Part shown: positions 16,132 through 51,576 of the stretch, piece after piece
How positions within the stretch are numbered: position 1 is the first letter of the stretch
Layout: every line of letters starts with the position of its first letter
Assembly: GCF_002803075.1 (NCBI RefSeq)
Contig: NZ_NNBK01000009.1
Span: 101,704-165,703, forward strand
Direction of reading: 5' to 3'
DNA length: 64,000 bases
Source: Streptomyces sp. CB01373
Lineage (GTDB): Bacteria; Actinomycetota; Actinomycetes; Streptomycetales; Streptomycetaceae
Program-made: the position numbers and the translations under genes
Notes under the pieces: generated by a model
What the model saw: only the letters and a program-made list of their open reading frames with translations
Database searches by the model: none
Told to the model about the DNA's origin: nothing

Positions 16132-16172
16132 ACTGCCGCTCCTGGAGACGTGGGGGAGGTTCAGTGAGCTGT

Positions 16173-16188
16173 GCAGGTCTAGACCAAG
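16173..16188 (-). promoter_or_regulatory. DasR-responsive element (dre)
   Basis: Read on the minus strand, ACTTGGTCTAGACCTG matches the dre core TGGTCTAGACC. It lies between the predicted -10 and the LPMO start, where a bound repressor would block transcription. DasR control of chitinolytic genes is established; occupancy here is inferred. Confidence 0.8.
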
Positions 16189-16191
16189 TTC

Positions 16192-16220
16192 AGGCTATTG
16201 CCGTTACTTGAACATGTCCA
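16192..16220 (-). promoter_or_regulatory. predicted promoter of the LPMO gene
   Basis: On the minus strand, TGGACA (-35, at 16220-16215), a 17-bp spacer, then TAGCCT (-10, at 16197-16192). It sits immediately upstream of the dre site. Confidence 0.5.
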
Positions 16221-16249
16221 TACCAAAGGCGGGACCTCCCCCGCCCCCG

Positions 16250-17395: not shown

Positions 17396-17468
17396 ACCTG
17401 CCTCCAGCCTCCGCGCCAGATGGTTCAGACGTTCGTACGGTGGGTCGGCGGCCCCGCGGGGACCGCGG

Positions 17469-18770
17469 TCATGCGAAGAGCCGGCGCCAGGTGTCCGGCC
17501 CCGGCAGGCCGTCCGCCGCGCCGCCCCGCCACCCCTGGGCGCGCTGGAAGGCCTCGACGGCCCGCCGGTCCGCGTCCGACCAGCGCGGCCCCGGCCCGTT
17601 CCGGTAGAACCGGCCGTACCCCTTCCGCACGAGCTGCCGGCCCAGCTCGGTGACGTAGCGGTTCTCGGCGCCGGGCCGGAACATCTCCCGTCCCGGATAG
17701 CCGGGCACCCCGTGCGAGGCGGGGGCCGCGGCCTTGATGTCCTTGCCCTTCCCGGTCACCAGCAGCCGCCACGTCCCCGGCCCCGGCAGCCCGTTCGCGG
17801 CCGCCCCGGTCCAGCCCTGGGCCCGCTGGAAGGCCCGGGTGGCCCGCCGGTCCGCCTCCGACCAGCGCGAGCCGGGCCCCTTGGCGTAATAGGAGGCGCC
17901 GCCGCGGGCGGCGAGCATCCGGCCGAGGCGGGCGACATGCGGGTTGTCGGCGCCGGGACCGAAGTACGCCGCTCCCGGGTACGGCGCGGAAGAGGGCGCG
18001 GCGGGGGCGGCCAGGTCCCGGGTCAGGCCCTTGTAGCGGTAGGGGACGTACCGCTTGGAGTTGCTCCAGTAGGCGTACGGGGTGGTGATGCGGCGGGTGT
18101 GCGGCGGCACCTGCTCGTAGGCGGTGTACGAGATGTGCCGCGGGTCCTTCCAGCCGCCGAAGAGCACCACGTGCGAGCCCTTCTGGGGGTTGTCGGGGTT
18201 GTGGAAGAGCAGGATGTCGCCGGGCTGGAGCTGGTCCTTGGTGATCCGCACCGCGTACTGGCCGAGGCTGCCCGTCCACTCGTTGCGCGGCAGGTTCCAG
18301 GCCATCGAGACGTAGCCCGAGCAGTCCTGGCGGTATCCGTCGCGCCAGAAGCGGCTCATGCTGTACGGCACCCGGGCGTCCAGCCACTTCTTGGCCCGGC
18401 CGACGATCAGCGACCGGGTGGTGGCGCCGATCGCGAGCGGCTCCCCCTCCTTGACCGGCCGGTTCGGCCCGTCCGGCCCGAACAGCGCGCTCACGCCGCC
18501 CTGCGGGGTCCCGGACTCGCCGCCCGGGGGCTGGTCGGCCCGCGGGGCGGACGGCCGGCCCGCGGTATGGGTGGCTGCCGCCGCCGGTACCGCCTGGCCC
18601 GCGCCGAGGGCCGCGGCGGTGACGGCCGCCACGACCAGCGCCCGGTGCGCGGCGGCCGGACGGGCCGGGGTGCGGCCGGACGGGGAGCGGAAGAGGCCGC
18701 GTCCGCGCACGCACCCGGGGCAGTCGCAGTCGCTCGCGGGATCGATGTCCTCGAACACCGGAGACCTCAT
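17469..18770 (-). CDS. secreted NlpC/P60-like protein with two C-terminal peptidoglycan-binding repeats
   Basis: A 433-aa predicted cell-wall protein. After a Cys-rich N-terminal patch (CDCPGC) comes a hydrophobic export segment ending in AAAATHTAG. The central domain has QDCSGYVSMAW with the likely catalytic Cys and a SHVVLFGGW His, as in NlpC/P60-like amidase folds. The C-terminal part holds two tandem copies of a ~70-residue repeat, each ending WR-LPGPxTWR-type and containing RWS(E/D)ADRRA..AFQRAQGW. The ATG at 18770 has AGGA upstream; the open frame runs 20 codons further. It lies next to the cslA locus, as SCO2835 does in S. coelicolor (recalled). Confidence 0.8.
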   Translation of the reverse strand: MRSPVFEDIDPASDCDCPGCVRGRGLFRSPSGRTPARPAAAHRALVVAAVTAAALGAGQAVPAAAATHTAGRPSAPRADQPPGGESGTPQGGVSALFGPDGPNRPVKEGEPLAIGATTRSLIVGRAKKWLDARVPYSMSRFWRDGYRQDCSGYVSMAWNLPRNEWTGSLGQYAVRITKDQLQPGDILLFHNPDNPQKGSHVVLFGGWKDPRHISYTAYEQVPPHTRRITTPYAYWSNSKRYVPYRYKGLTRDLAAPAAPSSAPYPGAAYFGPGADNPHVARLGRMLAARGGASYYAKGPGSRWSEADRRATRAFQRAQGWTGAAANGLPGPGTWRLLVTGKGKDIKAAAPASHGVPGYPGREMFRPGAENRYVTELGRQLVRKGYGRFYRNGPGPRWSDADRRAVEAFQRAQGWRGGAADGLPGPDTWRRLFA

Positions 18771-18956
18771 GCGATCTTCCTCACAGTCAATAGGTGTATA
18801 TCCCGATCTGTGCACGTTGATCATTGCCACAACTGTCCACCGGGCGCGAACATTGACGGTCCGAATGATGTACAGGGCGGCCCGGCCGGCCCCGGGGGCC
18901 GGACACAGGTGGTCGGGAGGCCCCCGCAGGTCATGTAAAGTGAACGATGTCAGTAG

Positions 18957-19030
18957 GCGCCGCTAGCTCAGTTGGTTAGAGCAGCTGACTCTTAATCAGC
19001 GGGTCCGGGGTTCGAGTCCCTGGCGGCGCA
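18957..19030 (+). tRNA. tRNA-Lys (anticodon CTT), copy 2
   Basis: A 74-nt gene identical base for base to copy 1. Here the next three bases are CCA (19031-19033), so the mature 3' end is encoded. A -10-like TAAAGT lies about 18 bp upstream. A strong terminator follows within 10 bp. Confidence 0.97.
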
Positions 19031-19038
19031 CCACGACA

Positions 19039-19081
19039 AAGGCGAGCCCGGTCCCACAGGACCGGGCTCGCCTTCGCGTTT
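19039..19081 (+). terminator. factor-independent terminator after tRNA-Lys 2
   Basis: A 14-bp perfect stem (GGCGAGCCCGGTCC and its complement) with a CACA loop, then TTCGCGTTTT. It ends the tRNA unit. Confidence 0.88.
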
Positions 19082-19219
19082 TGGCGGCCGAACCCCCTCG
19101 ACGCACGTTCTTCCCGCAATGCGCGCGTATGGCCGGTAAACTCCGAGTTTCGCGTCTTGCGATCATGCTGAGCACCGTAGAACCCTGGATGTCGAACTGC
19201 CGCCTCTTTGGCGGCACTT

Positions 19220-19254
19220 GGGGGGTGTGAGGGATGTTGGGGGGTGTTGGGGGG
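19220..19254 (+). promoter_or_regulatory. G-quadruplex-forming motif
   Basis: Four G tracts (6, 3, 6 and 6 long) separated by TGTGA, ATGTT and TGTT meet the G3+N1-7 quadruplex rule on the coding strand, about 230 bp before cslA. A regulatory role is inferred only. Confidence 0.5.
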
Positions 19255-19262
19255 TTGTAGGA

Positions 19263-19337
19263 GCCGGTTGTCCGGCGGCGCGGTGAGCCGTGACTCCCGC
19301 GCGCCGACGGCTGCCATGCGGCGGCCGGACAACCGGC
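19263..19337. repeat. 14-bp inverted repeat pair upstream of cslA
   Basis: GCCGGTTGTCCGGC at 19263 and its exact complement GCCGGACAACCGGC at 19324, with a 47-bp spacer. This could be a looping operator or an RNA stem. The flanks (CGGCGG/CCGCC-like) add partial pairing. Confidence 0.6.
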
Positions 19338-19482
19338 GGGCCGCGATGCCTGTCTCCGGGGTGGGACCGACGACCAGGTGATCCGCGGCCGGCACGCACA
19401 CGTCCGTCACGGGCCGAGGGGGGCCTCGAACGGGCGAAGGAACCGACGAACACGCGCTCGCATGCGTGTGGGGGGATGAGTC

Positions 19483-21507
19483 ATGACGTCGACGCCGACG
19501 GGCGCCCGGCACGAATCCGATCCTTCTGAGACGACCCGGCTGAGAGTGCCGGGACACCGCACCGGCACCACGGGGACCTTCCGCAGAATCAAGAAGTCCC
19601 TGCCGAAGTACGACTACGAGCACTACAGCCGGCTCGCCGGCCCTCTCACCGAGCCCGACCCGGACAAGCCGTACACGGTGCAGTACCGCTCGCTGATCTC
19701 GCAGGAGCCGCACCGCGTCCGGGTCGCGCTGATGCTCGCGGCCGCGCCGCTGCTGTCGCTGGTCCTGCTGGCCTGGCTGCTCCAGCCGGCGCACTGGACC
19801 GTACGCGACTACCCGGCCTACGACTTCCTGCCGGCGCTCGACATGGTGATGCTGGTCTCGATCGGCCTGATCGAGTTCTTCCGCTGCATGAACGTGCTGT
19901 CCAACGCGCACGCCACCCTGGTCGCCCGCGACCCGGTCCCGGTGGTGCCGCAGAGCGGCACGCGGGTCGCGTTCCTGACCTCCTTCGTGCCCGGCAAGGA
20001 ACCGCTGGAGATGGTGACCAGGACCCTGGAGGCCGCCGTACTGCTGCGCCACCGGGGCCTGCTGCACATCTGGCTGCTCGACGAGGGCGACGACCCGGAG
20101 GTGAAGGAGGTCTGCGCGCGCCTGGGCGTGCACCACTTCAGCCGCAAGGGCGTCGAGCGCTGGAACCAGGCCAAGGGCCCGCACCGCGCCAAGACCAAGC
20201 ACGGCAACTACAACGCCTGGCTCCAGGCGCACGGCGACGAGTACGACTTCTTCGCCTCCGTCGACACCGACCACGTGCCGCTGCCCAACTACCTGGAGCG
20301 GATGCTGGGCTACTTCCGCGACCCGGACGTCGGCTTCGTGATCGGCCCGCAGGTCTACGGCAACTACGACACGTTCGTCACCAAGGCCGCCGAGTCGCAG
20401 CAGTTCCTGTTCCACGCGCTGATCCAGCGGGCCGGCAACCGCTACGGCGCGCCCATGTTCGTCGGCACCTCGAACGCCGTGCGGATCAAGGCGCTCAAGC
20501 AGATCGGCGGACTGTACGACTCGATCACCGAGGACATGGCCACCGGCTTCGAGATGCACCGCGCCAAGAACCCGGCGACCGGCCGCAAGTGGAAGTCGGT
20601 GTACACCCCGGACGTGCTCGCGGTCGGCGAGGGCCCGAACGCCTGGACCGACTTCTTCACCCAGCAGCTGCGCTGGTCGCGGGGCACCTACGAGACGATC
20701 CTCAAGCAGTACTGGAAGGGCTTCGGCACCCTGCCCGCGGGCAAGCTCTTCAACTACACGATGATGATCATCTTCTATCCGATGTCCGCCCTCAACTGGA
20801 TCCTCGCGGCGCTGAGCTGCGCGCTGTTCCTGGGCCTCGGCGCCTCGGGCGTGAACATCGACCCGACCGTGTGGCTGATGCTGTACGGCAACGCCTCCGC
20901 GCTCCAGATCGGCCTGTACGTCTGGAACCGGCGCCACAACGTCTCCCCGCACGAGCCGGAGGGCTCCGGCGGGGTGGCCGGCATGGTGATGTCGGCGCTG
21001 TCGGCGCCGATCTACGCCCGCTCGCTGATGGACGCCGCACTGCGCCGCAAGAGCAAGTTCGTGGTGACCCCGAAGGGCGAGTCGGCGAGCCCCGACACGC
21101 TGTTCGGGACGTTCCGCATCCACTGGTTCTTCATCCTGGTCTTCGGCGGCTCGCTCGTCGCGGGCTTCGTCCTCGGGCACTCCCACCCGGCGATGGTCAC
21201 CTGGGCGATCTTCGCCATGCTCGTCACCGCCACACCGATCTTCGCCTGGCGGTGGACCCTGCGGCAGGAGCGGCGCCGGCAGGCGACCGCGTCCGCCGCG
21301 CCTCAGCCGCCGGCCGCGGTCGCGGCGCACCCGCACCGGGCGCACACACCGGCCCAGGGGACGCCGGTCCCGGCGGCGGAGGTACCGCCGGGGCAGGGAC
21401 CGGGCAACGCGGGCAGGCAGGGGCCGAGTTGGGCCGGAAAGGACGCGGCGACGGGCGAGCACACCATGGAGATCGCCCTCGGTGGACTGGGGGGACGTAA
21501 GGAATGA
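19483..21507 (+). CDS. cslA: cellulose synthase-like glycosyltransferase
   Basis: Membrane processive GT2 enzyme of 674 aa that makes the beta-glucan at hyphal tips in Streptomyces. Two N-terminal membrane segments (about 78-100 and 113-132) are followed by the GT-A core with the aspartates in LLDEGDD and SVDTDH, then TEDMATG and the polymer-binding QQLRWSRG. Three or four further membrane segments and a Pro/Ala-rich cytosolic tail of about 70 residues follow. The ATG is preceded by GGGGGATGAGTC. The stop overlaps the glxA start (ATGA). Gene order with glxA and GH6 matches the S. coelicolor/S. lividans cslA-glxA locus. Confidence 0.94.
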   Translation: MTSTPTGARHESDPSETTRLRVPGHRTGTTGTFRRIKKSLPKYDYEHYSRLAGPLTEPDPDKPYTVQYRSLISQEPHRVRVALMLAAAPLLSLVLLAWLLQPAHWTVRDYPAYDFLPALDMVMLVSIGLIEFFRCMNVLSNAHATLVARDPVPVVPQSGTRVAFLTSFVPGKEPLEMVTRTLEAAVLLRHRGLLHIWLLDEGDDPEVKEVCARLGVHHFSRKGVERWNQAKGPHRAKTKHGNYNAWLQAHGDEYDFFASVDTDHVPLPNYLERMLGYFRDPDVGFVIGPQVYGNYDTFVTKAAESQQFLFHALIQRAGNRYGAPMFVGTSNAVRIKALKQIGGLYDSITEDMATGFEMHRAKNPATGRKWKSVYTPDVLAVGEGPNAWTDFFTQQLRWSRGTYETILKQYWKGFGTLPAGKLFNYTMMIIFYPMSALNWILAALSCALFLGLGASGVNIDPTVWLMLYGNASALQIGLYVWNRRHNVSPHEPEGSGGVAGMVMSALSAPIYARSLMDAALRRKSKFVVTPKGESASPDTLFGTFRIHWFFILVFGGSLVAGFVLGHSHPAMVTWAIFAMLVTATPIFAWRWTLRQERRRQATASAAPQPPAAVAAHPHRAHTPAQGTPVPAAEVPPGQGPGNAGRQGPSWAGKDAATGEHTMEIALGGLGGRKE

Positions 21508-23438
21508 AGGACCAGGCCGGCCTCCGGCGCGCCCGACGGCTCGGGATCGGCGCGGTGGTGGTAGTCGCTCTAGCCGGGATGAACGGGCCGTGGCTCTACC
21601 GCTTCGGCACGGAGCGCTATCACGAGTACAAGATCAACAAGCCGGAGTACAAGGCCGAGAACGGCCACTGGGAGATCGTCGAGTTCCCCGAGGAGTACCG
21701 GCAGAACACCATCCACGCCGTGCTGCTGCACACCGGCAAGGTGCTGATGGTCGCGGGTTCGGGCAACAACAAGAAGAACTTCGACGCGCGGCGGTTCGAC
21801 ACCCGGATCTGGGACCCGGTCAACGGCACGATCAAGAAGGTGCCCACGCCCGAGGACCTGTTCTGCACGGGCCACACCCAGCTCGCCGACGGCAACATCC
21901 TGATCGCCGGCGGCACCAAGCGCTACGAGAAGCTCCAGGGCGACGTCACCAAGGCCGGCGGCCTGATGATCGTCCACAACGAGAACCCGGACAAGCCGAT
22001 CACGCTGCCCGCGGGCACGACGTTCACCGGGAAGGAGAACGGCAGGACGTTCGTCTCCAAGGACCCGGTGCTGGTGCCGCGCGCCAAGAAGAACTTCGAC
22101 AAGGCCGGCCGGTTCCTGGGCAACACCCCGGGCCTGGGCCGCATCTACGTCGAGGCGCAGAAGAGCGGCGCCCGGTACGAGACGGGCAGCCAGGACAACT
22201 ACCGGATCCAGGGGCTGTCCGGCGACGACGAGCGCAACACCTACGGCATCGCGGAGAAGCTCGCCCTGGACAAGAAGGACTTCCAGGGGATCCGGGACGC
22301 CTACGAGTTCGACCCGGCCGCCGAGAAGTACATCAAGGTCGACCCGATGAACGAGGCCCGCTGGTACCCGACGCTCACCACCCTGAGCGACGGGAAGGTC
22401 CTCAGCGTCTCCGGCCTGGACGACATCGGCCAGCTGGTCCCGGGCAAGAACGAGGTCTTCGACCCCGGGACCAAGAAGTGGACGTACACGCCGAAGGTCC
22501 GCCAGTTCCCGACCTACCCGGCGCTGTTCCTCCTGCAGAACGGCAAGCTGTTCTACTCCGGCTCCAACGCGGGGTACGGTCCGGCCGACGTGGGCCGCGA
22601 CCCGGGCGTCTGGGACGTGGACAGCAACGAGTTCACCAAGCTGCCCGGTCTGAGCGACGCGCGGATGATGGAGACCTCCGGCACGGTGCTGCTGCCGCCC
22701 GCGCAGGACGAGCGGTTCATGGTGATCGGCGGCGGCGGGGTGGGCGAGTCCAAGCTGGCCAGCCGGAAGACCCGGATCATCGACCTGAAGTCGAAGAACC
22801 CGCGCTTCACGGACGGCCCGACACTGGAGAAGGGCACTCGCTACCCGCAGACATCGATCCTGCCCGACGACTCCGTCCTGGTCTCCGGCGGCTCGGAGGA
22901 CTACCGGGGCCGGGGCGACTCCAACATCCTCCAGGCCCGGCTCTACGACCCGGCGACCAGCACCTTCAAGCGGGTCGCCGACCCGCTGGTGGGCCGCAAC
23001 TACCACGCCGGCTCGATCCTGCTGCCGGACGGCCGCTTGCTGTTCTTCGGCTCCGACTCGCTCTACGGCGACAGGGCCGACACCAAGCCCGGCACGTTCG
23101 AGCAGCGCGTCGAGATCTACACGCCGCCGTATCTGTACCGGGACGCGCGGCCCTCACTGTCGGGCGGCCCGCAGACCATCGCGCGGGGCGCCTCCGGCAC
23201 GTTCACCTCGCAGCACGCCGGCACGGTCAAGAAGGTCCGGCTGATCCGCCCGAGTGCCTCCACGCATGTGACGGACGTCGACCAGCGCTCGATCGCGCTG
23301 GACTACACCATGTCCGGCGACAAGATCACGGTGACGGTGCCGAAGGGCCGGAACCTGGTGCAGTCGGGGTGGTACATGCTGTTCGCCGACGACGACCAGG
23401 GGACGCCCAGCGAGGCACAGTGGGTGAAGGTCCCGTAG
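21504..23438 (+). CDS. glxA: GlxA radical copper oxidase, galactose-oxidase-like
   Basis: Membrane-anchored mononuclear copper oxidase of 644 aa, required with CslA for tip glycan deposition. An N-terminal signal-anchor (residues 13-26) is followed by a seven-bladed kelch-type propeller and a C-terminal E-set domain. Cys121 (DLFCTGH) and the Tyr of ARWYPT near 288 are the expected thioether cross-link pair, with Trp just before that Tyr as in GlxA rather than in galactose oxidase. Copper ligands appear in GRNYHAG and THVTD. Translationally coupled to cslA. A bidirectional terminator follows. Confidence 0.93.
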   Translation: MKDQAGLRRARRLGIGAVVVVALAGMNGPWLYRFGTERYHEYKINKPEYKAENGHWEIVEFPEEYRQNTIHAVLLHTGKVLMVAGSGNNKKNFDARRFDTRIWDPVNGTIKKVPTPEDLFCTGHTQLADGNILIAGGTKRYEKLQGDVTKAGGLMIVHNENPDKPITLPAGTTFTGKENGRTFVSKDPVLVPRAKKNFDKAGRFLGNTPGLGRIYVEAQKSGARYETGSQDNYRIQGLSGDDERNTYGIAEKLALDKKDFQGIRDAYEFDPAAEKYIKVDPMNEARWYPTLTTLSDGKVLSVSGLDDIGQLVPGKNEVFDPGTKKWTYTPKVRQFPTYPALFLLQNGKLFYSGSNAGYGPADVGRDPGVWDVDSNEFTKLPGLSDARMMETSGTVLLPPAQDERFMVIGGGGVGESKLASRKTRIIDLKSKNPRFTDGPTLEKGTRYPQTSILPDDSVLVSGGSEDYRGRGDSNILQARLYDPATSTFKRVADPLVGRNYHAGSILLPDGRLLFFGSDSLYGDRADTKPGTFEQRVEIYTPPYLYRDARPSLSGGPQTIARGASGTFTSQHAGTVKKVRLIRPSASTHVTDVDQRSIALDYTMSGDKITVTVPKGRNLVQSGWYMLFADDDQGTPSEAQWVKVP

Positions 23439-39346: not shown

Positions 39347-39439
39347 GGGCGCGGGGCGGGACGTACCGGCGCGGACCGGGGACCTAGGGAGGACGGGGCC
39401 GGGCTCGGGGATGCCTCGGGGATGGGCCCCTGGGGATGA

Positions 39440-39454
39440 GGTCCCCTGGGGACC
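39440..39454. terminator. small palindrome after the MFS gene
   Basis: GGTCCCCTGGGGACC (7-bp arms) in a gap otherwise made of GGGGAT-like repeats. It could be a weak terminator for the MFS transcript; no U tract. Confidence 0.35.
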
Positions 39455-39516
39455 CCGGATTCCCCTGGCCTGCAGATACCTCACTTTTGTCACTCCCCGG
39501 CAGTACGGTGTCCTCC

Positions 39517-40557
39517 ATGCGCCCCGCCACGCCCGCCGAAGACGCCGACCACGCCACCGAAGCGGCCCGCCTCGAGCGGACCGCCGATCTGTACCCCGAG
39601 GACGCCGAGGCCCTCCTCCTCCAGGCCGCGGCCCACCGGGAGTTGTCCGGCGACCGCCCCGCCGCGACGACCCTCTACGACCGGCTGCTGTCCTCCGACG
39701 CCGCCCTGGAGAACCCCCACCTGGTCCGGGCCCTCAAAGCCGCCAACCTCTGGGAGTACGGCCACGAGGCGGAGGCGAGAGCGATCATCGAGGGCGTCCG
39801 TTCCGCGGCGCCCCGCGACCCGGCGCCCTGGGTGATCGTCGCGGAGTCCCTGGAGGCACACGACGAACTCGAAGCAGCGCACGAGACGTTCACCCAGGGC
39901 GTGGAGCTGCTTCTCGCGGAGGCCCAGCAACCCCCGCGCGCCACCCACCCGCTCGTCTTCGGCCGCCACCGCGTCCGCCGCATGCTGGGCGCGGGCCACG
40001 ACGACTGGGACATGCTGGCCGACACCCTGCACAACTCCCCGGTCCCGCTGGACGAACTCCATGACCCGAAGCGCGTCTGGTCCCTCGGCTCGGAGAACCC
40101 GGCCGAACTGCAGGCGGAGATCACCCGCCTCCGCGCCGAACTCGGCGCCTACCGCGCGGCCCTCTCCCGCCCCTTCCCGGTGGCGGTCCTGCACTGGCCG
40201 GCGGAAGAACTGTCCGAACTGCTCACGGCCTACGACGGCCTCACGTCCGAATACCCCTCCCACGCGACCCACTTGGCGACGATAGAGGCCTCCCTGCGCG
40301 AGCTGGCCTCCTCCGGCACCCCCAACCTGGGCATCGTCACGGGCACGGTTCCCTCCTACGAGGCCTTCGCCGCCTCGGAGGCCGCCTCCCCGTCCGACCC
40401 GACGCTGCTGCCCCAGTACGCGACGACCCTGGCGGCCCGGGGCCGCGCGGTCGCCTGGCCACCGCAGCGGGGGTCACAGTGCTGGTGCGCCTCGGGGCAG
40501 GCGTACGGGGAGTGCCACGGGGCGGCCAAGCCCGCCGAACCCGCCGGAACCGTCTGA
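39517..40557 (+). CDS. TPR/SEC-C motif protein
   Basis: A 346-aa soluble protein. The first 150 residues are helical with TPR-like repeats (PEDAEALLLQAAAHRELSGD). The C-terminus carries a SEC-C zinc motif (CWCASGQAYGECHG). SEC-C tails are found on SecA and many uncharacterised proteins and mediate binding. The frame extends 27 codons upstream, but the ATG at 39517 fits the helical start. Convergent with the LysR gene. Function unknown. Confidence 0.75.
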   Translation: MRPATPAEDADHATEAARLERTADLYPEDAEALLLQAAAHRELSGDRPAATTLYDRLLSSDAALENPHLVRALKAANLWEYGHEAEARAIIEGVRSAAPRDPAPWVIVAESLEAHDELEAAHETFTQGVELLLAEAQQPPRATHPLVFGRHRVRRMLGAGHDDWDMLADTLHNSPVPLDELHDPKRVWSLGSENPAELQAEITRLRAELGAYRAALSRPFPVAVLHWPAEELSELLTAYDGLTSEYPSHATHLATIEASLRELASSGTPNLGIVTGTVPSYEAFAASEAASPSDPTLLPQYATTLAARGRAVAWPPQRGSQCWCASGQAYGECHGAAKPAEPAGTV

Positions 40558-40578: not shown

Positions 40579-41520
40579 TCAGTCCCGCTCGTGGGCGCCG
40601 GCCTCAGCCGGCCGGTGCGCGGGCCGGCCGGGACGACTCGCGCCGAAGGCCGTCACGAGCAGGTCGAGCAGCGGCGCCGAGCAGGGGTGCGGGTCGCGGC
40701 GCGGAGTGAGCGTATGGATGCCGCGGGTCGGGGGATCCACGAGGGCCACCGTGGTGACATCGGTCCGCAGCGCGCCGCCCAGCACCCCCGGCATCAGCGC
40801 GATGGCGTGGCCGGCCGCGACCAGCGCCAGCTTGCCGGGTAGATCGGCCGCGGCGAGGTCGATGCGGGCGGTCACTCCGGCGCGGGCGGCGTGCTGGCGC
40901 AGCAGCGCCGCCGAGCCCTCGTTGTCCTCCACCCAGGTCTGGTCGGCCAGGGCCTGGACACGCACCGGGGCGCCCCCGGCCAGCGGGTGGCCGAGGGGCA
41001 GCACGACGACCATCTCGTCCATCCCCAGGAACCGTCGTTCGAGACGCGGGTCGTCGGGCAGCCCCGGCGGCGCGTCGGTGACCACGGCGAGGTCCAGGTC
41101 GCCTGAGACCACACGGTCGTACAACTCCAGGCTGAGTCCGGGCGACAGGCTCCACAAGACCGTTCCGGCGGTGTCCAGCAGGCGGCGTATCGCCACGGGC
41201 ACGATCCCGGCGGCCAGGGAAGGCGTCGCACCGACGGCCAGGCGCCGTACCGGCGCACCGTCCCGCAGGTCCCGCACGGCACGAACCGCCCGGTCGGCCT
41301 CGGTGAGCGCGGCCGTCGCGTGACGGCGGAACACCTCCCCGGCAGGCGTCGGACGCACACCACGCGCGTGCCGCTCCACCAGCGGCACCCCGAACTCGCG
41401 CTCCAGTCCGGCGATCTGCCGGGAGACGGCCGACTGCGTGTAGCCGAGTTCGTCGGCCGCGGCCGACAGCGACCCGAGCCGGCACACCGTCACGAAGGCC
41501 CGCCATGAAGTGAGCGTCAT
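40579..41520 (-). CDS. LysR-family regulator
   Basis: LysR-type transcription factor of 313 aa. The winged helix at 1-60 includes GSLSAAADELGYTQSAVSRQI; the periplasmic-binding-like effector domain occupies 88-290. Divergent from the reductase fusion gene, with an intergenic stretch of 96 bp that contains a direct GTATGC repeat, so it probably activates that gene. The ribosome site is weak. Confidence 0.87.
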   Translation of the reverse strand: MTLTSWRAFVTVCRLGSLSAAADELGYTQSAVSRQIAGLEREFGVPLVERHARGVRPTPAGEVFRRHATAALTEADRAVRAVRDLRDGAPVRRLAVGATPSLAAGIVPVAIRRLLDTAGTVLWSLSPGLSLELYDRVVSGDLDLAVVTDAPPGLPDDPRLERRFLGMDEMVVVLPLGHPLAGGAPVRVQALADQTWVEDNEGSAALLRQHAARAGVTARIDLAAADLPGKLALVAAGHAIALMPGVLGGALRTDVTTVALVDPPTRGIHTLTPRRDPHPCSAPLLDLLVTAFGASRPGRPAHRPAEAGAHERD

Positions 41521-41616
41521 GGCCCGCAAGTATGCCCGCCGGTATGCGAATCCCGCAGACCTGCCCTGCGAGATCTGCGCTTGTCGCAGTCCTCGTGGTG
41601 TCCGAGGCTCGGACGC

Positions 41617-42804
41617 ATGACCACACCTCACACCGTTCGCACTGTCGCCGTGCTCGGCCTGGGCCGCATGGGCGCCGCGATCGCGGCCCGACTCGCCGGC
41701 CAGAACTGGGACGTCGTCGGCTGGACCCGGTCCGGCCGCCACGTCGCCGGCGCCGTCGAGACGACTCGCGACCCGGAGGACGCCGTGGCGAAGGCGGACG
41801 TCGCGCTCCTGGCACTGTTCGACGGACAGGCGTGCCGGCAGGTCGCCGACCGCATCCACCCCGCCCTGCGACCGGACACGATCGTGCTGAACACCAGCAC
41901 CATCGCCCCCGCCGAGGCCGCGGCACTGGCACGGCGGCTCGGCCCGTCCTACGTCCACGCGCCCGTGCTCGGCTCCGTACCGGCGGTGGCCGCCGGCACC
42001 CTGCGGATCCTCGCCGCCGGAGAGCAGGACGCACTCGCCGGCGTCCAACCGCTGCTGCGCGCGCTCGGCACCGTACGGCCCGTCGACGACGCCGCCACCG
42101 CCGCGGCGCTCAAACTGATCGCCAACAGCAGTCTCGCCGGCGCCGTCCTCGCCCTGCGCGACGCACTGCGGCAGGCCGACGCCCTGGGCCTCCCCCGCGC
42201 CCAGGCGCTGGACGTCCTCGAACTCGGCCAGCTCGGCGGCCTGGTCACCCGCAAGCGGACCTTCCTCGCAGACGGGGCGGCCTCGACCACGGCCCCTGGG
42301 GAGTTCACGATCGGCGCGCTGGCCAAGGACATGGCGCTCCTGGCCACCGCGTCGAACAGCCCCCTGCGCAGCGCGGCCGACCTGGCCGGCACCCCGGCCG
42401 ACCCGGAGGCCGACATCGCCGTGGCCGCCACGGTTCCCGCCGTGGACGACGCCGTGCTCGAACCGCTGCGCCGCTACATCGAGGGCCACGCCACCGGCGA
42501 CCCCGCCCACTTCCGCGAGGCGTTCCTGCCCACCGCCCACATCGAGGGCATCCGGGACGGCGCGTTCGCGTCATGGCGCCTGGACGAGTACTGCGGGCTC
42601 TTCCCCGGCCACCCGGCCACGGACGAGCCGGCCCGCACCCGCCGCATCGACACCGTCGACGTCCACGGCACCGTAGCCACCGCGACCATGACCCTCCGCC
42701 ACGGCCCGGACACCTTCACCGACGTCTTCCTGCTGGTCCGGGCCGAGGGAAGGTGGCGCATCGCGAACAAGGCGTACCACCGGACTCCCCGGCCGGCGGC
42801 GTGA
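41617..42804 (+). CDS. NAD(P)-dependent 3-HIBADH-like reductase fused to an NTF2-like domain
   Basis: A 395-aa fusion. Residues 1-280 are a beta-hydroxyacid dehydrogenase-like reductase with VLGLGRMGAAIAARL, the ALFDGQ/TSTIAP region and the catalytic Lys helix ALKLIANSSLAG. Residues about 285-390 form an NTF2/Lumazine-binding-2-like domain (LRRYIEGHATGDPAHFREAF ... GRWRIANKAYHR). Reductases of this family are normally single-domain, so this pairing is unusual. LysR-controlled by position. The substrate is unknown. Confidence 0.82.
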   Translation: MTTPHTVRTVAVLGLGRMGAAIAARLAGQNWDVVGWTRSGRHVAGAVETTRDPEDAVAKADVALLALFDGQACRQVADRIHPALRPDTIVLNTSTIAPAEAAALARRLGPSYVHAPVLGSVPAVAAGTLRILAAGEQDALAGVQPLLRALGTVRPVDDAATAAALKLIANSSLAGAVLALRDALRQADALGLPRAQALDVLELGQLGGLVTRKRTFLADGAASTTAPGEFTIGALAKDMALLATASNSPLRSAADLAGTPADPEADIAVAATVPAVDDAVLEPLRRYIEGHATGDPAHFREAFLPTAHIEGIRDGAFASWRLDEYCGLFPGHPATDEPARTRRIDTVDVHGTVATATMTLRHGPDTFTDVFLLVRAEGRWRIANKAYHRTPRPAA

Positions 42805-43023: not shown

Positions 43024-43046
43024 TTGTCAGCGGCCCCTGTTACAAC
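43024..43046 (+). promoter_or_regulatory. RecA-independent DNA-damage promoter (PafBC type)
   Basis: TTGTCAGCG-N8-TACAAC fits the actinobacterial RecA-NDp consensus TTGTCRGTG-N8-TAnnnT with one mismatch in the upstream block and one in the -10. It is 32 bp upstream of the helicase GTG, with the correct orientation and spacing. Confidence 0.65.
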
Positions 43047-43077
43047 AGAGCCACTGAAACGTGATCGAGGGGACTTG

Positions 43078-46000
43078 GTGACGGAATCACAGGGTGGGGG
43101 CCAGCCGGTCGCTGGCGTGTACGAACGGCTGATCACTCAGGACGTGCGCGATGAGCTGGGGCAGCTCGCGGCCATGGGGTGGAAGGCCGTCGACGCCGAG
43201 GTGAGCAAGGAGTCCTCACCTCACGTTCTGGCCCGGCATGTCGGCGAGGTGGTCGCCCGCACGCTCAACCAGCTCCCCTCCGACCAGCGCGTCCCCTTCG
43301 TCAACAAGGTCCTGGAAGCTCTGGCCGTCAGCCAGACCGACGCCGAGCCCGTCAGCACGGTCGTCGACGGCCCCCGCCAACTGCTCGCCCTCGCACAGCA
43401 GGAGGCGCCGGGAGCCTATGCGATCCGCCCCCTCACTCCGCTGTCCGAAACCTCGTTGCTCACGAACTCGCCGGATGACCTCAGCCTGGGTGCCGAGCTT
43501 CGCGCCGAGCTCGCGACCGCGGACCGTATCGACCTGCTTTGCGCGTTCGTGAGGTGGTACGGCATCCGAGTCCTGGAGGACGCTCTTCGCGCCGCCAAGG
43601 AGCGCGGCGTACAGATCCGGGTCATCACGACCACGTACATGGGAGCCACCGACCGTCACGCGCTCGACCGGCTGGTGCGGGACTTCGGTGCGACCGTCAA
43701 GGTCAACTACGAGATCCGCTCCACACGCCTGCACGCCAAGGCCTGGCTGTTCCGGCGGAAGACGGGCTTCGACACCGCCTACGTCGGCAGCTCGAACCTG
43801 TCCAGAGCCGCACTGCTCGACGGCTTGGAGTGGAACGTACGGCTGTCGTCCGTCGCCACACCCGCGGTGCTGAACAAGTTCGAGGCGACGTTCGACGCGT
43901 ACTGGAGCGACACCGCCTTCGAGGCATACGATCCCGATCTCCACGGCGAACGCCTCGATGGAGCGCTCGCCCAGGCGGGCGGCACCAGCTCCACCACCGA
44001 CCTGAAGATCAGCCTCTCCGGTCTCGAGGTACGTCCCTTCCCTCACCAGCGGGACATGCTGGAGCGGCTCACCGTCGAGCGGGAGCTCCGTGGGCGGCAC
44101 CGGAACCTGCTGGTCGCGGCGACCGGTACCGGGAAGACGGTGATGGCCGCCCTGGACTACCGCAGCCTGTGCAAGGAGTCGGACGGCAGCCGGCCGAGGC
44201 TGCTGTTCGTGGCCCACCGCAAGGAGATCCTCAAGCAGTCTCTGCGTACGTACCGAGAGGTGCTGGACGACGCGTCGTTCGGCGAGCTGCTGCACTCGGG
44301 GCAGGACCCGCGCGACTGGAACCACGTCTTCGCCAGCGTCCAGTCTCTCGATGTGCAGCAGCTTGAGCAGCTGGCCCCCGATCGTTTCGACATCATCGTC
44401 ATCGACGAGTTCCATCACGCCACCGCGACGACGTACAGGCGGGTCATCGACCACTTCACGCCGAAGGAACTCCTCGGTCTGACGGCGACCCCTGAGCGGA
44501 TGGACGGACTCAACGTCCAGGACGAGTTCTTCGAGGGCCGGATCGCCGCCGAGATGCGGCTGTGGGAAGCCCTGGAGAACGACCTCCTGTGCCCCTTCCA
44601 CTACTTCGGTGTCCCTGACGGCACCGATCTGACGAACCTGGGCTGGCAGAGAGGCTCGTACACCGACCAGGAGCTCGGCAACCTCTACACGGGCAACCAC
44701 GCCCGCGCCCGGATCGTGGTGAAGCAGATCCGGGACAAGGTCTCCAACCCGGAAGCCATGCGCGCGCTCGGCTTCTGCGTGACCAAGGCACACGCGCACT
44801 TCATGGCGGACTTCTTCCGCGAGGCCGGTTTCAACGCCGTGGCACTCGACAGCGACTCACCCGCCGACACGCGCGCCCAGGCCTTGTCTGACCTGCGCGG
44901 CGGCAACCTCCAAGTGATCTTCTCCGTCGATCTGTTCAACGAGGGCCTCGACATCCCCGACGTCGACACGCTGCTCCTCCTCCGCCCTACCAACAGCGCC
45001 ACCGTCTTTCTCCAGCAACTGGGCCGGGGGCTGAGGCGTACCGAGACGAAGCCGGTACTCACGGTCCTCGACTTCATCGGACAGCACAGGGCGGAGTTCC
45101 GCTTCGAGGACCAGTTCCGGGCACTGACCGACCTCTCGCGGAACCGGCTCATCGAGCACATCGAGCACGACTTCCCGCAACTGCCGTCCGGCTGCCAGAT
45201 CATCCTGGAGGGCAAGTCCAAGGACCTCATCCTCGGCAACATCCGCACTCAAGTGAACGCCACGGTCAAGACGTTGGTGAAGGAGGTCCAGGCCTACAGC
45301 ACGCCGCTCCTCGCCGACTATCTTCGGGAGAGCCGCCGGGAGATCAAGGAGCTCTACAAACGCGAGAACTCCTGGACGACCATCCTGCGCCGGGCCGGTC
45401 TGATCGAGGAGTCCGCGTCGGCTGAGGAAGCGGCCCTACTCAAGCGGGTCCACGCTTTCCTCCATGTGGACGACCCGGAGCGCGCGGACGCCTACCTCCG
45501 CCTCCTCCAGGACGATGCTCCACCGTACGAGGAACTGGGCCCGACGGATCAGTCGTACGCCCGCATGCTGTTCTTCAACCTGTGGGACAACGCGGGAGGC
45601 TTCACCAGCTTCCAAGAGGGCCTTGCATCGCTTCGTCCTCAGCAGGCGTTCCGGGATGAGTTGCGACAGGTGCTGTCTCACGTCATCGAGCAGGCCGACC
45701 ACTTCCCCATCTCGCTGTCCGGCCGCCTCAGCCAGGTCCCGCTGAAGATTCACAGTGCCTACAACCGCTCGGAAATCCTCGCCGCCCTCGGTGTGGCCCG
45801 CTTCGGAGGGCAGATGCCGCGCTCCTTCGCTCAAGGGGTCCAGTGGGTCGAGGAGCTCCAGACGGACGCCCTGCTCATCACGCTGGAGAAGAACGAGAAA
45901 GACTTCTCGCCCACCGTCCGGTACAAGGACTACGCCTTGAGCCCGACGCTCTTCCACTGGGAGTCGCAGAACGCAACGGCCGAGGGCTCCCGAACCGGGA

Positions 46001-46215
46001 TGCGGTACCGACAGCACGAGCAGCGCGGCAGCCACGTTCTGCTGTTCATGCGGCGCTACAACGACACGGACATAGGCAAGCCCCAGCCGTGGATGCTCCT
46101 CGGCCCGGCGACGTACCAGTCCCACACGGGCAGTAAACCGATGGCGATCACCTGGCGCTTGAAGCACGATCTCCCGGCGGACGCCTGGACGTACTCGGCC
46201 ATCACGGCGAGTTGA
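43078..46215 (+). CDS. PLD nuclease-SF2 helicase-DUF3427 protein
   Basis: A 1045-aa predicted DNA-processing enzyme. The N-terminal third contains one phospholipase-D-type nuclease half-site (HAKAWLF at 219, then SSNLSRAAL). A DEAD/DEAH-type SF2 helicase follows: Walker A ATGTGKT with Lys353, DEFH at 443-446, motif V NEGLDIPDV, motif VI QQLGRGLRR at 646-654. The C-terminal ~400 residues are DUF3427-like. The GTG start has GAGGGG upstream. Enzymes of this architecture resemble restriction-type translocases and are suspected phage-defence or repair proteins. Its damage-type promoter supports this. Codon choice is less GC-extreme than in the neighbours. Confidence 0.87.
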   Translation: MTESQGGGQPVAGVYERLITQDVRDELGQLAAMGWKAVDAEVSKESSPHVLARHVGEVVARTLNQLPSDQRVPFVNKVLEALAVSQTDAEPVSTVVDGPRQLLALAQQEAPGAYAIRPLTPLSETSLLTNSPDDLSLGAELRAELATADRIDLLCAFVRWYGIRVLEDALRAAKERGVQIRVITTTYMGATDRHALDRLVRDFGATVKVNYEIRSTRLHAKAWLFRRKTGFDTAYVGSSNLSRAALLDGLEWNVRLSSVATPAVLNKFEATFDAYWSDTAFEAYDPDLHGERLDGALAQAGGTSSTTDLKISLSGLEVRPFPHQRDMLERLTVERELRGRHRNLLVAATGTGKTVMAALDYRSLCKESDGSRPRLLFVAHRKEILKQSLRTYREVLDDASFGELLHSGQDPRDWNHVFASVQSLDVQQLEQLAPDRFDIIVIDEFHHATATTYRRVIDHFTPKELLGLTATPERMDGLNVQDEFFEGRIAAEMRLWEALENDLLCPFHYFGVPDGTDLTNLGWQRGSYTDQELGNLYTGNHARARIVVKQIRDKVSNPEAMRALGFCVTKAHAHFMADFFREAGFNAVALDSDSPADTRAQALSDLRGGNLQVIFSVDLFNEGLDIPDVDTLLLLRPTNSATVFLQQLGRGLRRTETKPVLTVLDFIGQHRAEFRFEDQFRALTDLSRNRLIEHIEHDFPQLPSGCQIILEGKSKDLILGNIRTQVNATVKTLVKEVQAYSTPLLADYLRESRREIKELYKRENSWTTILRRAGLIEESASAEEAALLKRVHAFLHVDDPERADAYLRLLQDDAPPYEELGPTDQSYARMLFFNLWDNAGGFTSFQEGLASLRPQQAFRDELRQVLSHVIEQADHFPISLSGRLSQVPLKIHSAYNRSEILAALGVARFGGQMPRSFAQGVQWVEELQTDALLITLEKNEKDFSPTVRYKDYALSPTLFHWESQNATAEGSRTGMRYRQHEQRGSHVLLFMRRYNDTDIGKPQPWMLLGPATYQSHTGSKPMAITWRLKHDLPADAWTYSAITAS

Positions 46216-49343: not shown

Positions 49344-49671
49344 TGACCTTCGGCGGTTGTGGTTCTTGAGGCCCGTTGCCGCGCTCCTCAGGAGGTGCCG
49401 TAGATCCCATCGGGATGGCCATCCTCCCCTCCTTGCCCAGCGATCCCAGAAGTTCTCCCACACCCCTCCCGCCCCACCACGCCTGATCTGCACCTTCCTG
49501 TCGTGCGGCCTTGCGCGGGGGCGACCTTGGGGCGAATCTGGAAGCCGCCCGTCGAGGGCTGCGGCAACGGGCGTGGGGGGCCAGCTGTCTGTGCCGAGCT
49601 GCCGGATTTCGGGACCGCGCACGCCGAGGTGGGCCGAGGGCCAGTACGGACAGATCCAAGGGGGAGTGGCC
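49344..49671. other. intergenic region before the FHA gene
   Basis: About 330 bp without a supported gene. Open frames here simply extend the FHA frame upstream without a ribosome site. No repeat or hairpin of note seen. Confidence 0.55.
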
Positions 49672-51576
49672 ATGCCGGCTTCGATCACCGGGCGTGTGGG
49701 GCCCCTGGCCGGGCGGCGGTTCCCCGTCGGCGCCGCGCCGGTCACCTTCGGGCGCAGTGGTGACAGCAGTGTCGTGATCGCCAGTGGGCGGGCCTCGCGC
49801 CTGCACGCGGAGGTGCTGCGCGAGGCGGGCCGCTACGTCCTGTACGACCGCGGAAGCCGCAACGGGACGCTGGTCAACGGCAATAAGGTGACGTCCCACG
49901 TCCTCGCGTCCGGCGACGAGATCACCATCGGCGACGAGGTCTTCGGCTTCGAGATCCCCGAGTCGATGGAGACGATCACAGATGTCCTGGGCCCGCTCGC
50001 GACCGTCGCGCCGGGCCCGGTCCTGAACGTCACCGTCTCCGGCGGCGGGCCCGTGGGGTTGGGCTTCGCCCTGCTGCTGGAGCACCTGATGGGCCGCCGT
50101 GTGGCCATCACGATGTACGACGGCCGCTGGACCGAGGACGGTTCGCGGGTCGTCTGGAAGAACGAGGCACAGGGCAACGTCCGGCGGCAGCAGGTCGTGA
50201 CCGTCCAGAGCCGCCAGTACCTGAACCTCCCCGAGGAGGTCCAGGAGCGCCTGTTCGGCGCCGGCGCGTACACCGAGATGTGGCCGGCCGGGCCGGACTC
50301 CGTGCAGGGCTACGGCCCGCGGAACATCCGGATCGCATACGTCGAGGACGTACTCCTCGAGATGGCGAACGAGAAGTCCGACCGGATCCGGCTCGTGCCC
50401 AGCCGCTTCGACCCGGCCGAGCAGCGTGAGGCGGTGGTCAAGGACCACGTGCTCGCCATCTGCGAGGGCGGCCGTTCGCGGACCCGGGACCACCTCGCCG
50501 ACAAGTTCGGCGCCCCCGACGCGTCGATCTACTCCCTGAACGGCCACCACGTCCAGGACGTCGTGCTGGGCCTGCGCGTGAAGTCCGACCTGCCGGACCC
50601 CATGGCCGTCCTGCTGACGGTGGCCCAGAACCGCTTCCTGCTCAACTCCCTCAGCGGCGAGGGCTTCCTGAACATGCGCCTCACCGACGCCGAGGCCCAG
50701 GAGGTCATCGGGGTCGACCCCGTGCGGCACGTGTTCGAGCAGTGTGTCGCCTCGCGGCCCTGCCTCATGGGCCGCAACGACGAGGGCGACTTCCGCTGTT
50801 CGACCCATGGCACGCTGTTCCTGCCCGCCCTGGTCAAGGGTTCGGCCCTGTGGAAGCGCGTACTGGAGGGCCTGGTCCTCTTCGGCGTCACCGAGGAGAA
50901 TCTGAGCGCCGTCACCGGGTTCCGCCTGGACATGGTGCAGCGGCCCCGCTTCACAGCCCGGCTCCACTCCGCGACGTCCGCCACCCCGGGAACGTACGGG
51001 TTCCTGCTCGGGGACGCGGCCAACGCCATCCACTTCTGGCCGGGCCGCGGGCTCAACAGCGGCCTCGCGTCGGCCATCTCGCTCGCACGCTCCCTCAGCA
51101 ACGCCTGGCGGGGGAAGGCCTTCCGCGACGCCGACTTCGTCCGTCACGAGGCGGCGATGTCGATGCTCCAGTACCGGCACAAGAGCCGCGCCTGGAACGC
51201 CATGGTCACCACCGACGAACACGGCGACACCTGCGCGATCAAGGACACGATCGCGCAGAGCATCGAGGCGGCCGCGCCGGACGCTCCGAACGGCGCGGCC
51301 GGCAAGGCGGACGAGGCGGACCTCGACGCGTTCATGGACCGGCTGCGGGAGGTCCGCGACCGCCTCTCACCGCGTGTCCCCGGCATGCCGGACGACGCGA
51401 CCCTCCGCGACCACCTGCGGAAACTGAAGCCCGAGACCATCCGCACCCTGCTCGCGAGCGGCGCCTGGGACACCCTGACCGTCGGCGGCGAAGAGGTGGA
51501 CATCGACATCTTCTACCGGCAGATCTCCTCGCCGGCACCCGTCATGAAGCAACCCGATCCCCGTCTCAAGGCCTGA
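49672..51576 (+). CDS. FHA domain fused to FAD-dependent monooxygenase-like protein
   Basis: A 634-aa fusion. Residues 1-105 are an FHA phosphothreonine-binding domain with GRSGDSS, SRLHAEVL and DRGSRNGTLVNGNKV. Residues about 120-480 resemble a flavin monooxygenase: dinucleotide motif SGGGPVGLGFALLLEHL and the FAD-ribityl motif GDAANAIHFWPGRGLNSGL. The last 150 residues are helical and charged. ATG with GGGGGAG 5 nt upstream. The pairing suggests an oxidoreductase recruited or switched by kinase signalling. The next feature downstream is a MITE. Confidence 0.82.
   Translation: MPASITGRVGPLAGRRFPVGAAPVTFGRSGDSSVVIASGRASRLHAEVLREAGRYVLYDRGSRNGTLVNGNKVTSHVLASGDEITIGDEVFGFEIPESMETITDVLGPLATVAPGPVLNVTVSGGGPVGLGFALLLEHLMGRRVAITMYDGRWTEDGSRVVWKNEAQGNVRRQQVVTVQSRQYLNLPEEVQERLFGAGAYTEMWPAGPDSVQGYGPRNIRIAYVEDVLLEMANEKSDRIRLVPSRFDPAEQREAVVKDHVLAICEGGRSRTRDHLADKFGAPDASIYSLNGHHVQDVVLGLRVKSDLPDPMAVLLTVAQNRFLLNSLSGEGFLNMRLTDAEAQEVIGVDPVRHVFEQCVASRPCLMGRNDEGDFRCSTHGTLFLPALVKGSALWKRVLEGLVLFGVTEENLSAVTGFRLDMVQRPRFTARLHSATSATPGTYGFLLGDAANAIHFWPGRGLNSGLASAISLARSLSNAWRGKAFRDADFVRHEAAMSMLQYRHKSRAWNAMVTTDEHGDTCAIKDTIAQSIEAAAPDAPNGAAGKADEADLDAFMDRLREVRDRLSPRVPGMPDDATLRDHLRKLKPETIRTLLASGAWDTLTVGGEEVDIDIFYRQISSPAPVMKQPDPRLKA

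What the first reader, a model, noticed from the sequence alone, without database searches (positions are those of the whole stretch)
43024..46215. PLD-helicase-DUF3427 enzyme behind a DNA-damage promoter
A restriction-like enzyme with nuclease and translocase parts sits alone behind a RecA-NDp (PafBC) promoter. This predicts induction by DNA damage or phage attack. I know of no PafBC-controlled defence gene of this type, so it may be an undescribed damage-triggered anti-phage or repair system.
Basis: partly seen in the sequence, partly recalled or inferred. Interest (0 to 1): 0.75.

Follow-up and report, generated by a model that had tools for sequence, protein, structure and literature searches.

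The report
Restriction enzyme behind DNA-damage promoter
A Streptomyces gene for an enzyme that very probably cuts foreign methylated DNA sits behind a switch normally used for DNA-repair genes, and a second defence system (Wadjet) carries a similar switch in many related bacteria, which suggests that DNA damage may turn defences on.

Summary
Window 43078-46215 (+) encodes a 1045-aa PLD nuclease, SF2 ATPase and DUF3427 protein, with a RecA-NDp (PafBC-type) box, TTGTCAGCGGC-N6-TACAAC, at 43024-43046, 31 nt before the start codon. The enzyme is not a new kind: it is a SauUSI-type, modification-dependent (Type IV) restriction enzyme, probably the orthologue of S. coelicolor ScoA3I/Sco2863, and its C-terminal domain is predicted to be an SRA domain (the 5-methylcytosine-reading fold). 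The regulation looks new. The box passes a strict test in 41 of 56 Streptomyces orthologues drawn genus-wide (shuffles 0.9%) and in 0 of 35 homologues from other genera. The genome has 38 such boxes (reversed control 1), many before repair genes, and encodes PafB and PafC. This promoter is distinctive: an extended -10 (TGn) without the final T. Unexpectedly, Wadjet JetA genes also carry RecA-NDp-like promoters: 6 of 6 in Streptomyces and, by a pattern loosened after inspection, 14 of 22 in other actinomycetes (shuffles under 0.2%). PafBC-controlled, damage-inducible defence is the best reading. Induction was not tested; one published dataset shows sco2863 rising with recA, lexA and dnaE2 in one of two conditions that raise those genes.

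The parts
43024..43034 (+). RecA-NDp / PafBC-type box TTGTCAGCGGC (10 of 11 to TTGTCAGTGGC)
43038..43046 (+). extended -10 element TGT-TACAAC (TGn plus a -10 without the final T)
43067..43073 (+). likely ribosome-binding site GAGGGGA
   Evidence: read from sequence
43078..46215 (+). Type IV restriction enzyme gene, SauUSI-type, 1045 aa (GTG start; stop included)
43573..43905 (+). PLD nuclease domain (residues 166-276); HxK motif at 43732-43740
44029..45036 (+). SF2 ATPase/translocase (ResIII and Helicase_C, residues 318-653)
45541..46194 (+). DUF3427 = coupler part and SRA-type modified-base reader (residues 822-1039)
39436..40557 (+). neighbour whose relatives lie upstream of the gene in 59 of 64 orthologous loci with full flanks; C-terminal SEC-C-like motif read by eye, no Pfam hit
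19483..23438 (+). CslA-like and GlxA genes, positional landmark of the locus (SCO2836-SCO2837 in S. coelicolor)

Best explanation
The gene encodes a SauUSI-type, modification-dependent (Type IV) restriction enzyme: the C-terminal SRA domain reads 5-methylcytosine (or a like base), the SF2 ATPase then translocates on the DNA and the dimeric PLD nuclease shreds it. In Streptomyces it has a dual-mode promoter. An extended -10 (TGnTAnaaC) lets the housekeeping RNA polymerase start at a low basal level, enough for standing restriction. A PafBC-type -26 box lets ssDNA-activated PafBC recruit that polymerase and raise expression when DNA is damaged or when invading DNA leaves ssDNA. Shown here: domain make-up, catalytic residues and two base-pocket residues, SRA fold by model, promoter conservation in the genus, the same box before repair genes, PafB and PafC encoded. 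Inferred: m5C specificity, PafBC binding, basal and induced modes, benefit against phages or plasmids.
For: Enzyme: PADLOC mREase_IV 1905 bits; profile to SauUSI 7clg_A E 8.4e-134; C-terminal model matches SauUSI at Z 13.4 and SUVH5/6, ScoMcrA, UHRF SRA domains at Z 8-10. Promoter: strict box in 41 of 56 genus-wide orthologues against 24 of 2,800 shuffles and 64 of 77 close ones; box columns carry 1.2-1.7 bits; present in both deep Streptomyces clades. Regulon: 38 sites against 1 control; 13 of 18 scanned targets are repair or replication proteins. PafB and PafC encoded. RecA-NDp promoters are on record in Streptomyces. sco2863, the probable orthologue, rises log2 1.98 with dnaE2, dinP, uvrA, recA and lexA on topA down-regulation (PMC6637917, passages).
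Against: No expression data for this gene here. The -10 lacks the final T of 24 of 27 own sites. 15 of 56 orthologues fail the strict test: 13 keep a decayed form 28-59 nt before the start, L186 and L203 show none, and one pass, L201, lies only 13 nt from the start and may be chance. sco2863 is absent from the table for topA up-regulation, in which recA, lexA, dnaE2, dinP and uvrA still rise, and those authors explain the response by LexA. Stratton et al. saw no conserved M. smegmatis PafBC motif in S. venezuelae. Orthology with Sco2863 rests on position and kind, not on its sequence. SauUSI E126 is R226 here and Y831 has no clear partner.
Confidence: 0.7

Rival explanations
1. The enzyme is a Type IV restriction enzyme, but the promoter is an ordinary extended -10 promoter, constitutive or controlled by an unknown factor that binds TGTCAG; PafBC plays no real part.
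For: The -10 core is more conserved than the box; loci such as L026, L055, L059 and L060 keep the core with 1-5 of 11 box bases; the layout with TGn and no final T is unlike the other own sites.
Against: The box has the exact sequence and 6-nt spacing of the repair-gene boxes and stays in most orthologues; a single-gene regulator with the same motif is unlikely.
Confidence: 0.2
2. It is a DNA-repair nuclease-helicase that acts on damaged or stalled DNA of the cell itself, not a restriction enzyme.
For: Shared promoter with repair genes; the ATPase resembles RadD among others.
Against: Best match by far is SauUSI with an SRA domain; full-length in only 57 of 199 Streptomyces genomes (hand count), unlike core repair genes; Sco2863 is listed as restricting m5C DNA.
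Confidence: 0.07
3. It is a suicide device: on severe damage it cuts the cell's own (methylated) chromosome to stop phage spread.
For: A shredding nuclease (PMC7913695, abstract) under a damage promoter would fit; broken copies occur.
Against: Neighbour on the upstream side is stable (59 of 64 loci) and nothing resembling an immunity partner was seen in the neighbours scanned.
Confidence: 0.03

Closest known systems
SauUSI (Staphylococcus aureus Type IV restriction enzyme; PDB 7clg)
   Same: PLD nuclease, SF2 ATPase, coupler and SRA-type DUF3427 in the same order; HxK, Walker A, DExH and two base-pocket residues kept.
   Different: About 100 extra N-terminal residues; E126 is R226; Y831 has no clear partner. 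Regulation of SauUSI was not examined here.
ScoA3I / Sco2863 of S. coelicolor
   Same: Same genus, helicase with HsdR-like domain (PMC1934918, passages), position downstream of cslA-glxA fits, m5C restriction in vivo (PMC3874153, passages).
   Different: Sequence not seen here, so orthology is inferred; no report of PafBC control found (4 papers).
RecA-NDp / PafBC regulon of mycobacteria and Streptomyces (recA of S. rimosus; SCO6735)
   Same: TTGTCAGTGGC-N6-TA layout before repair genes; conserved in Streptomyces and UV-inducible for SCO6735 (PMC5087735, passages).
   Different: Here the target is a restriction enzyme and the -10 is extended and lacks the final T.
BrxR/CapW-type WYL regulators of defence systems
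   Same: WYL-domain regulators tied to defence genes, Type IV enzymes and Wadjet among them (PMC9122601, passages).
   Different: Those are encoded beside the defence genes (co-localised); PafBC is a chromosomal, global damage activator.

Membership tests
SauUSI-type Type IV restriction enzyme | PLD nuclease - SF2 ATPase - DUF3427 in one chain, with HxK and Walker A residues | tested here: met
SauUSI-type Type IV restriction enzyme | C-terminal SRA fold with modified-base pocket | tested here: met
   Fold by model: Z 13.4 to 7clg_A. Pocket: D858 and W868 kept as invariant D951 and W961, F841/I842 as L/I, Y831 unclear; so the pocket part is partial.
SauUSI-type Type IV restriction enzyme | ATP-dependent cleavage of m5C/hm5C DNA only | not testable with these tools
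   needs biochemistry
SauUSI-type Type IV restriction enzyme | motif H(X)K(X)4E of SauUSI | tested here: inconclusive
   HxK met; E126 aligns with R226. The role of E126 was not stated in the passages seen.
RecA-NDp (PafBC) promoter | TTGTCAGTGGC box, 6-nt gap, TA of the -10 | tested here: met
   10 of 11 with exact spacing; conserved in the genus
RecA-NDp (PafBC) promoter | -10 of the form TANNNT | tested here: not met
   TACAAC here; no T at the last place in the 41 strict genus-draw sites (C 31, A 9, G 1). So it is filed as a variant that works like RecA-NDp, not as a canonical member; dnaB of this genome also has TACAAC.
RecA-NDp (PafBC) promoter | PafBC-dependent induction by DNA damage | not testable with these tools
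   PafB and PafC are encoded; indirect expression hint only
LexA (SOS) regulon | SOS box TCGAAC-N4-GTTCGA at the promoter | tested here: not met
   no match with up to 3 mismatches between 41405 and 43880

The most novel reading that the evidence does not exclude
In actinomycetes PafBC is a global ssDNA-triggered switch for immunity as well as repair. Independent anti-DNA defence systems have been wired to it: a SauUSI-type enzyme in Streptomyces, through a promoter tuned to keep basal activity, and Wadjet JetABCD more widely. DNA broken or unwound during invasion would thus raise the cell's own anti-DNA nucleases.
Probability: 0.45. Interest if true: 0.8.

Novelty: new variant of a known kind. 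Interest (0 to 1): 0.6.

Why it matters
How bacteria decide when to express costly, self-threatening nucleases is an open question. The WYL regulators of defence described in PMC9122601 (passages) lie beside their systems; a chromosomal damage activator that drives two unrelated DNA-targeting defences would join the DNA-damage response with immunity in a large phylum. It could bear on variable methylated-DNA barriers in Streptomyces, which matter for strain engineering. It also makes directly testable whether PafBC works in Streptomyces, which Stratton et al. left open (PMC9380542, passages).

Tried and rejected
LexA control: no SOS-box-like match near the start, and none above 10 of 12 in the 38 loci of other genera or divergent copies. 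This promoter on DUF3427 genes in general: 0 of 35 outside the genus pass the strict test. Of those 35 genomes 27 hold perfect TTGTCRGTG-N8-TANNNT sites elsewhere (165 sites against 3 in the control, summed by hand), but the three nearest outside homologues (L122, L123, L124; 60-62% identical) come from genomes with 0, 2 and 0 such sites, so absence there says little. A looser pattern finds 1 of 35 (L123), whose layout looks like a degenerate form. Defence genes in general: Mrr_cat gives 1 of 30 loci, these 30 being those the tool turned into loci from 61 genomes.

Recent mobility: no plasmid or phage record reaches 60% identity; among the best 80 of 412 IMG/VR relatives the highest is 44%. 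Whole-protein model: too poor to use (mean pLDDT 54); the C-terminal domain alone worked. Not followed: a GATCACTTTT element within 60 nt upstream of the box in 15 of 75 promoters, absent from the window's upstream sequence shown.

A first anchored script used a wrong spacing and found nothing; corrected. Rows dropped: L012, L032 and L054 of the 80 loci have no upstream DNA; L064, L075 and L080 lack the -10 core at up to 1 mismatch but are among the 77. One search kept 80 of 150 relatives. The 57 full-length copies and the glxA distances were worked out by hand. Patterns without the final T, and TGTCNG-N10-TANNNT for JetA, were loosened after I had looked at the loci; with the test fixed beforehand (at least 11 of 12) JetA gives 6 of 24 against 2 of 2,400 shuffles. 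The 18 regulon proteins sent to Pfam were picked by eye from 37.

Odds for the best explanation and the novel case are stated for the first time in a complete form here.
Full report
WHAT IS THERE. The window lies in a Streptomyces-type genome (all 80 loci listed are Streptomyces; unnamed assembly of 7.88 Mb). ORF 43078-46215 (+) encodes 1045 aa with PLDc_2, ResIII, Helicase_C and DUF3427 domains. Upstream, 43024-43046 reads TTGTCAGCGGC-CCCTGT-TACAAC, 31 nt before GTG 43078. It is the only match to TTGTCAGTGGC-N6-TA with up to 1 mismatch in the window, 0.02 being expected.

THE ENZYME IS OF A KNOWN KIND. PADLOC's mREase_IV model matches residues 102-1042 with 1905 bits. A profile of 26 homologues matches SauUSI (7clg_A) with E 8.4e-134 over profile positions 116-1003. 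The HxK residues, Walker A (349-354) and D443, E444, H446 are invariant in those 26. SauUSI reads 5-methylcytosine with a C-terminal SRA domain (PMC7913695, abstract and passages). A model of window residues 800-1045 (mean pLDDT 83, pTM 0.84) matches SauUSI best (Foldseek E 6e-6; VIA Z 13.4, 187 residues, 3.9 A), then SUVH6 and SUVH5 (Z about 10) and ScoMcrA, AbaSI, PvuRts1I, TagI and UHRF SRA domains (Z about 8-9). Of the pocket residues named in that paper, D858 and W868 align with invariant D951 and W961, F841 and I842 with L933 and I934; the partner of Y831 is unclear (V921, in a gapped stretch). E126 of the SauUSI motif is R226 here. The full-chain model was poor and not used.

LOCUS AND ORTHOLOGY. 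The window carries LPMO, CslA-like and GlxA genes at 15526-23438, about 20 kb upstream of the gene. Of 21 Streptomyces genomes in few contigs that carry the enzyme, 17 have GlxA, and in 14 of these 17 it lies 17-30 kb upstream on the same strand (distances by hand; the other three are far away). In S. coelicolor cslA-glxA are SCO2836-SCO2837 (PMC3543389, passages), so SCO2863, a putative helicase with an HsdR-like domain (PMC1934918, passages), fits by position and kind. Sco2863 = ScoA3I is listed as restricting m5C DNA in vivo (PMC3874153, passages). A relative of the window's 39436-40557 gene lies upstream in 59 of 64 loci with both flanks, while the LysR and NAD-binding genes between it and the enzyme recur in 0 of 64, so they are a local insertion. 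Full-length copies occur in 57 of 199 Streptomyces genomes (hand count) and some genomes hold broken or partial copies: an old locus that is often lost.

THE PROMOTER IS CONSERVED IN THE GENUS. Strict test: at least 8 of 11 box bases and TA at 6 nt. Of 77 close orthologues with upstream DNA 64 pass. In a genus-wide draw of 56 orthologues (64-87% identical) 41 pass, against 24 of 2,800 shuffled regions. Of the 15 that fail, 13 keep a decayed form 28-59 nt before the start and two (L186, L203) show none; one pass (L201) is misplaced and may be chance. A looser pattern, TGTCNG-N10-TA, chosen after inspection, is found in 47 of 56 against 0.45% of shuffles. In 75 promoters aligned on the -10 core, box columns 2-9 carry 1.2-1.7 bits while the 40 columns upstream carry 0.02-0.60; offset windows reach 8 of 11 in 2 of 5,025 cases. 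In the same 75 the box falls below 8 in 11, four of them at 5 or less. On a 93-row FastTree the box is in both deep Streptomyces clades (28 and 29 rows), and the strict label needs at least 12 changes, so decay is frequent. Outside the genus 0 of 35 pass, although 27 of those 35 genomes hold perfect TTGTCRGTG-N8-TANNNT sites elsewhere. The three nearest outside homologues come from genomes with 0, 2 and 0 such sites, so it stays open whether the box arose in Streptomyces or was lost there.

IT IS THE REPAIR-GENE BOX. The genome has 38 sites with up to 1 mismatch, against 1 for the reversed pattern. Of the 37 other sites I sent 18 downstream proteins, picked by eye, to Pfam: 13 have DNA repair or replication domains (UvrA, UvrB, RecA, an RNase_T exonuclease, Exo_endo_phos, MGMT, DnaB, an Lhr-type helicase, DinB-type polymerase, uracil-DNA glycosylase, PDDEXK_1, RuvC, UvrD helicase), two are SWIM proteins, one is DUF3375 and two have no hit. 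The other 19 were judged by eye only or not at all; several have a broken TA or no evident link to repair. PafB and PafC are encoded, on the same contig as the Pup-ligase-family genes. RecA-NDp promoters in Streptomyces are on record: S. rimosus recA (PMC2375139, passages) and the UV-inducible SCO6735 (PMC5087735, passages). Against this, Stratton et al. report that an initial search did not find the M. smegmatis motif conserved in S. venezuelae (PMC9380542, passages).

A DISTINCTIVE FORM. Of the 27 own-genome sites with TA, 24 end in T; only this gene has TGn before TA. In the genus draw 40 of 41 strict sites have TGn, with last base C 31, A 9, G 1. TGTCAGYG-N5-TGNTANNAC occurs once in the genome without mismatch, at this gene (three times with one mismatch allowed, control 0). 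My reading (inference): the extended -10 supplies basal transcription that a -10 without its last T would lack, and PafBC, which in mycobacteria engages a -26 motif by sigma adaptation and is activated by ssDNA (PMC11804915, passages), adds induction. Published RNA-seq shows sco2863 up (log2 1.98) with dnaE2, dinP, uvrA, recA and lexA on topA down-regulation (Table 5); it is not in the table for topA up-regulation, where those repair genes rise too, and the authors explain the response through LexA (PMC6637917, passages). This is indirect support at best.

A SECOND DEFENCE SYSTEM. One of the 38 sites precedes a complete JetABCD (Wadjet) operon: JetA, JetB, JetC and JetD models at 675, 269, 1453 and 440 bits. 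JetA1 was found in 5 of 101 Streptomyces genomes and these 5 have exact TTGTCAGTG before JetA, in upstream DNA that hardly aligns otherwise (two JetA are 99% identical, the others 48-79%). In 394 genomes of the class 24 have JetA1. With the test fixed beforehand, 6 of 24 loci pass against 2 of 2,400 shuffles. Inspection then showed shorter matches, and TGTCNG-N10-TANNNT within 200 nt upstream is found in 6 of 6 Streptomyces loci and 14 of 22 others, against 0.17% and 0.05% of shuffles. Three of the 14 are over 90% identical to each other; the median JetA identity is 53%. Of the 8 misses, four are fragments or weak matches (under 350 bits). Two sites lie 6 nt before a start codon, as leaderless transcripts would have it (inference). 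Mrr_cat genes give 1 of 30, so this is not a trait of defence genes in general. The one paper in the library with both words PafBC and Wadjet is the BrxR study; it names Wadjet once, as co-localised with BrxR homologues, which is a different link.

VERDICT. A known kind of enzyme, an unusual and well-conserved regulation, and an unexpected parallel in Wadjet. The step from box to PafBC-driven induction is inference and is easy to test.

Noticed in passing
G000:C26:40628-40646 (-); operon in L121:3783-10777: Complete Wadjet JetABCD operon behind TTGTCAGTGGT-GGCCTC-TACGGT; similar boxes before JetA in 6 of 6 Streptomyces loci and 14 of 22 loci of other actinomycetes.
   Followed up: partly
L109:72-1490 (-): SWIM-domain protein matching PADLOC SWIM_XIII (166 bits) behind a RecA-NDp box in the same genome; a further candidate for damage-linked defence.
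   Followed up: no
L098 (dnaB) of the own genome: The replicative helicase gene dnaB has a RecA-NDp-type box with the same unusual -10 TACAAC but without TGn.
   Followed up: no
upstream of the box in L008, L011, L065 and other orthologues: A GATCACTTTT element (up to 1 mismatch) lies within 60 nt upstream of the box in 15 of 75 promoters; possible second control site.
   Followed up: no
window 40579-42804: LysR regulator and an NAD-binding/lumazine-binding-type gene lie between the SEC-C-like gene and the enzyme; relatives occur in 0 of 64 other loci with full flanks, so they look like a local insertion.
   Followed up: partly
window 49654-51576: FHA domain joined to a weak FAD_binding_3 match in one protein, an unusual pairing.
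   Followed up: no
window, both strands: 60 matches to TCGAAC-N4-GTTCGA with up to 3 mismatches against 25 expected; probably codon make-up, not SOS boxes.
   Followed up: no
G049:C1:16178-17398 and 10659740-10660960: A related helicase stretch appears twice, near both ends of one linear chromosome, in a longer protein; looks like a terminal-repeat gene.
   Followed up: no
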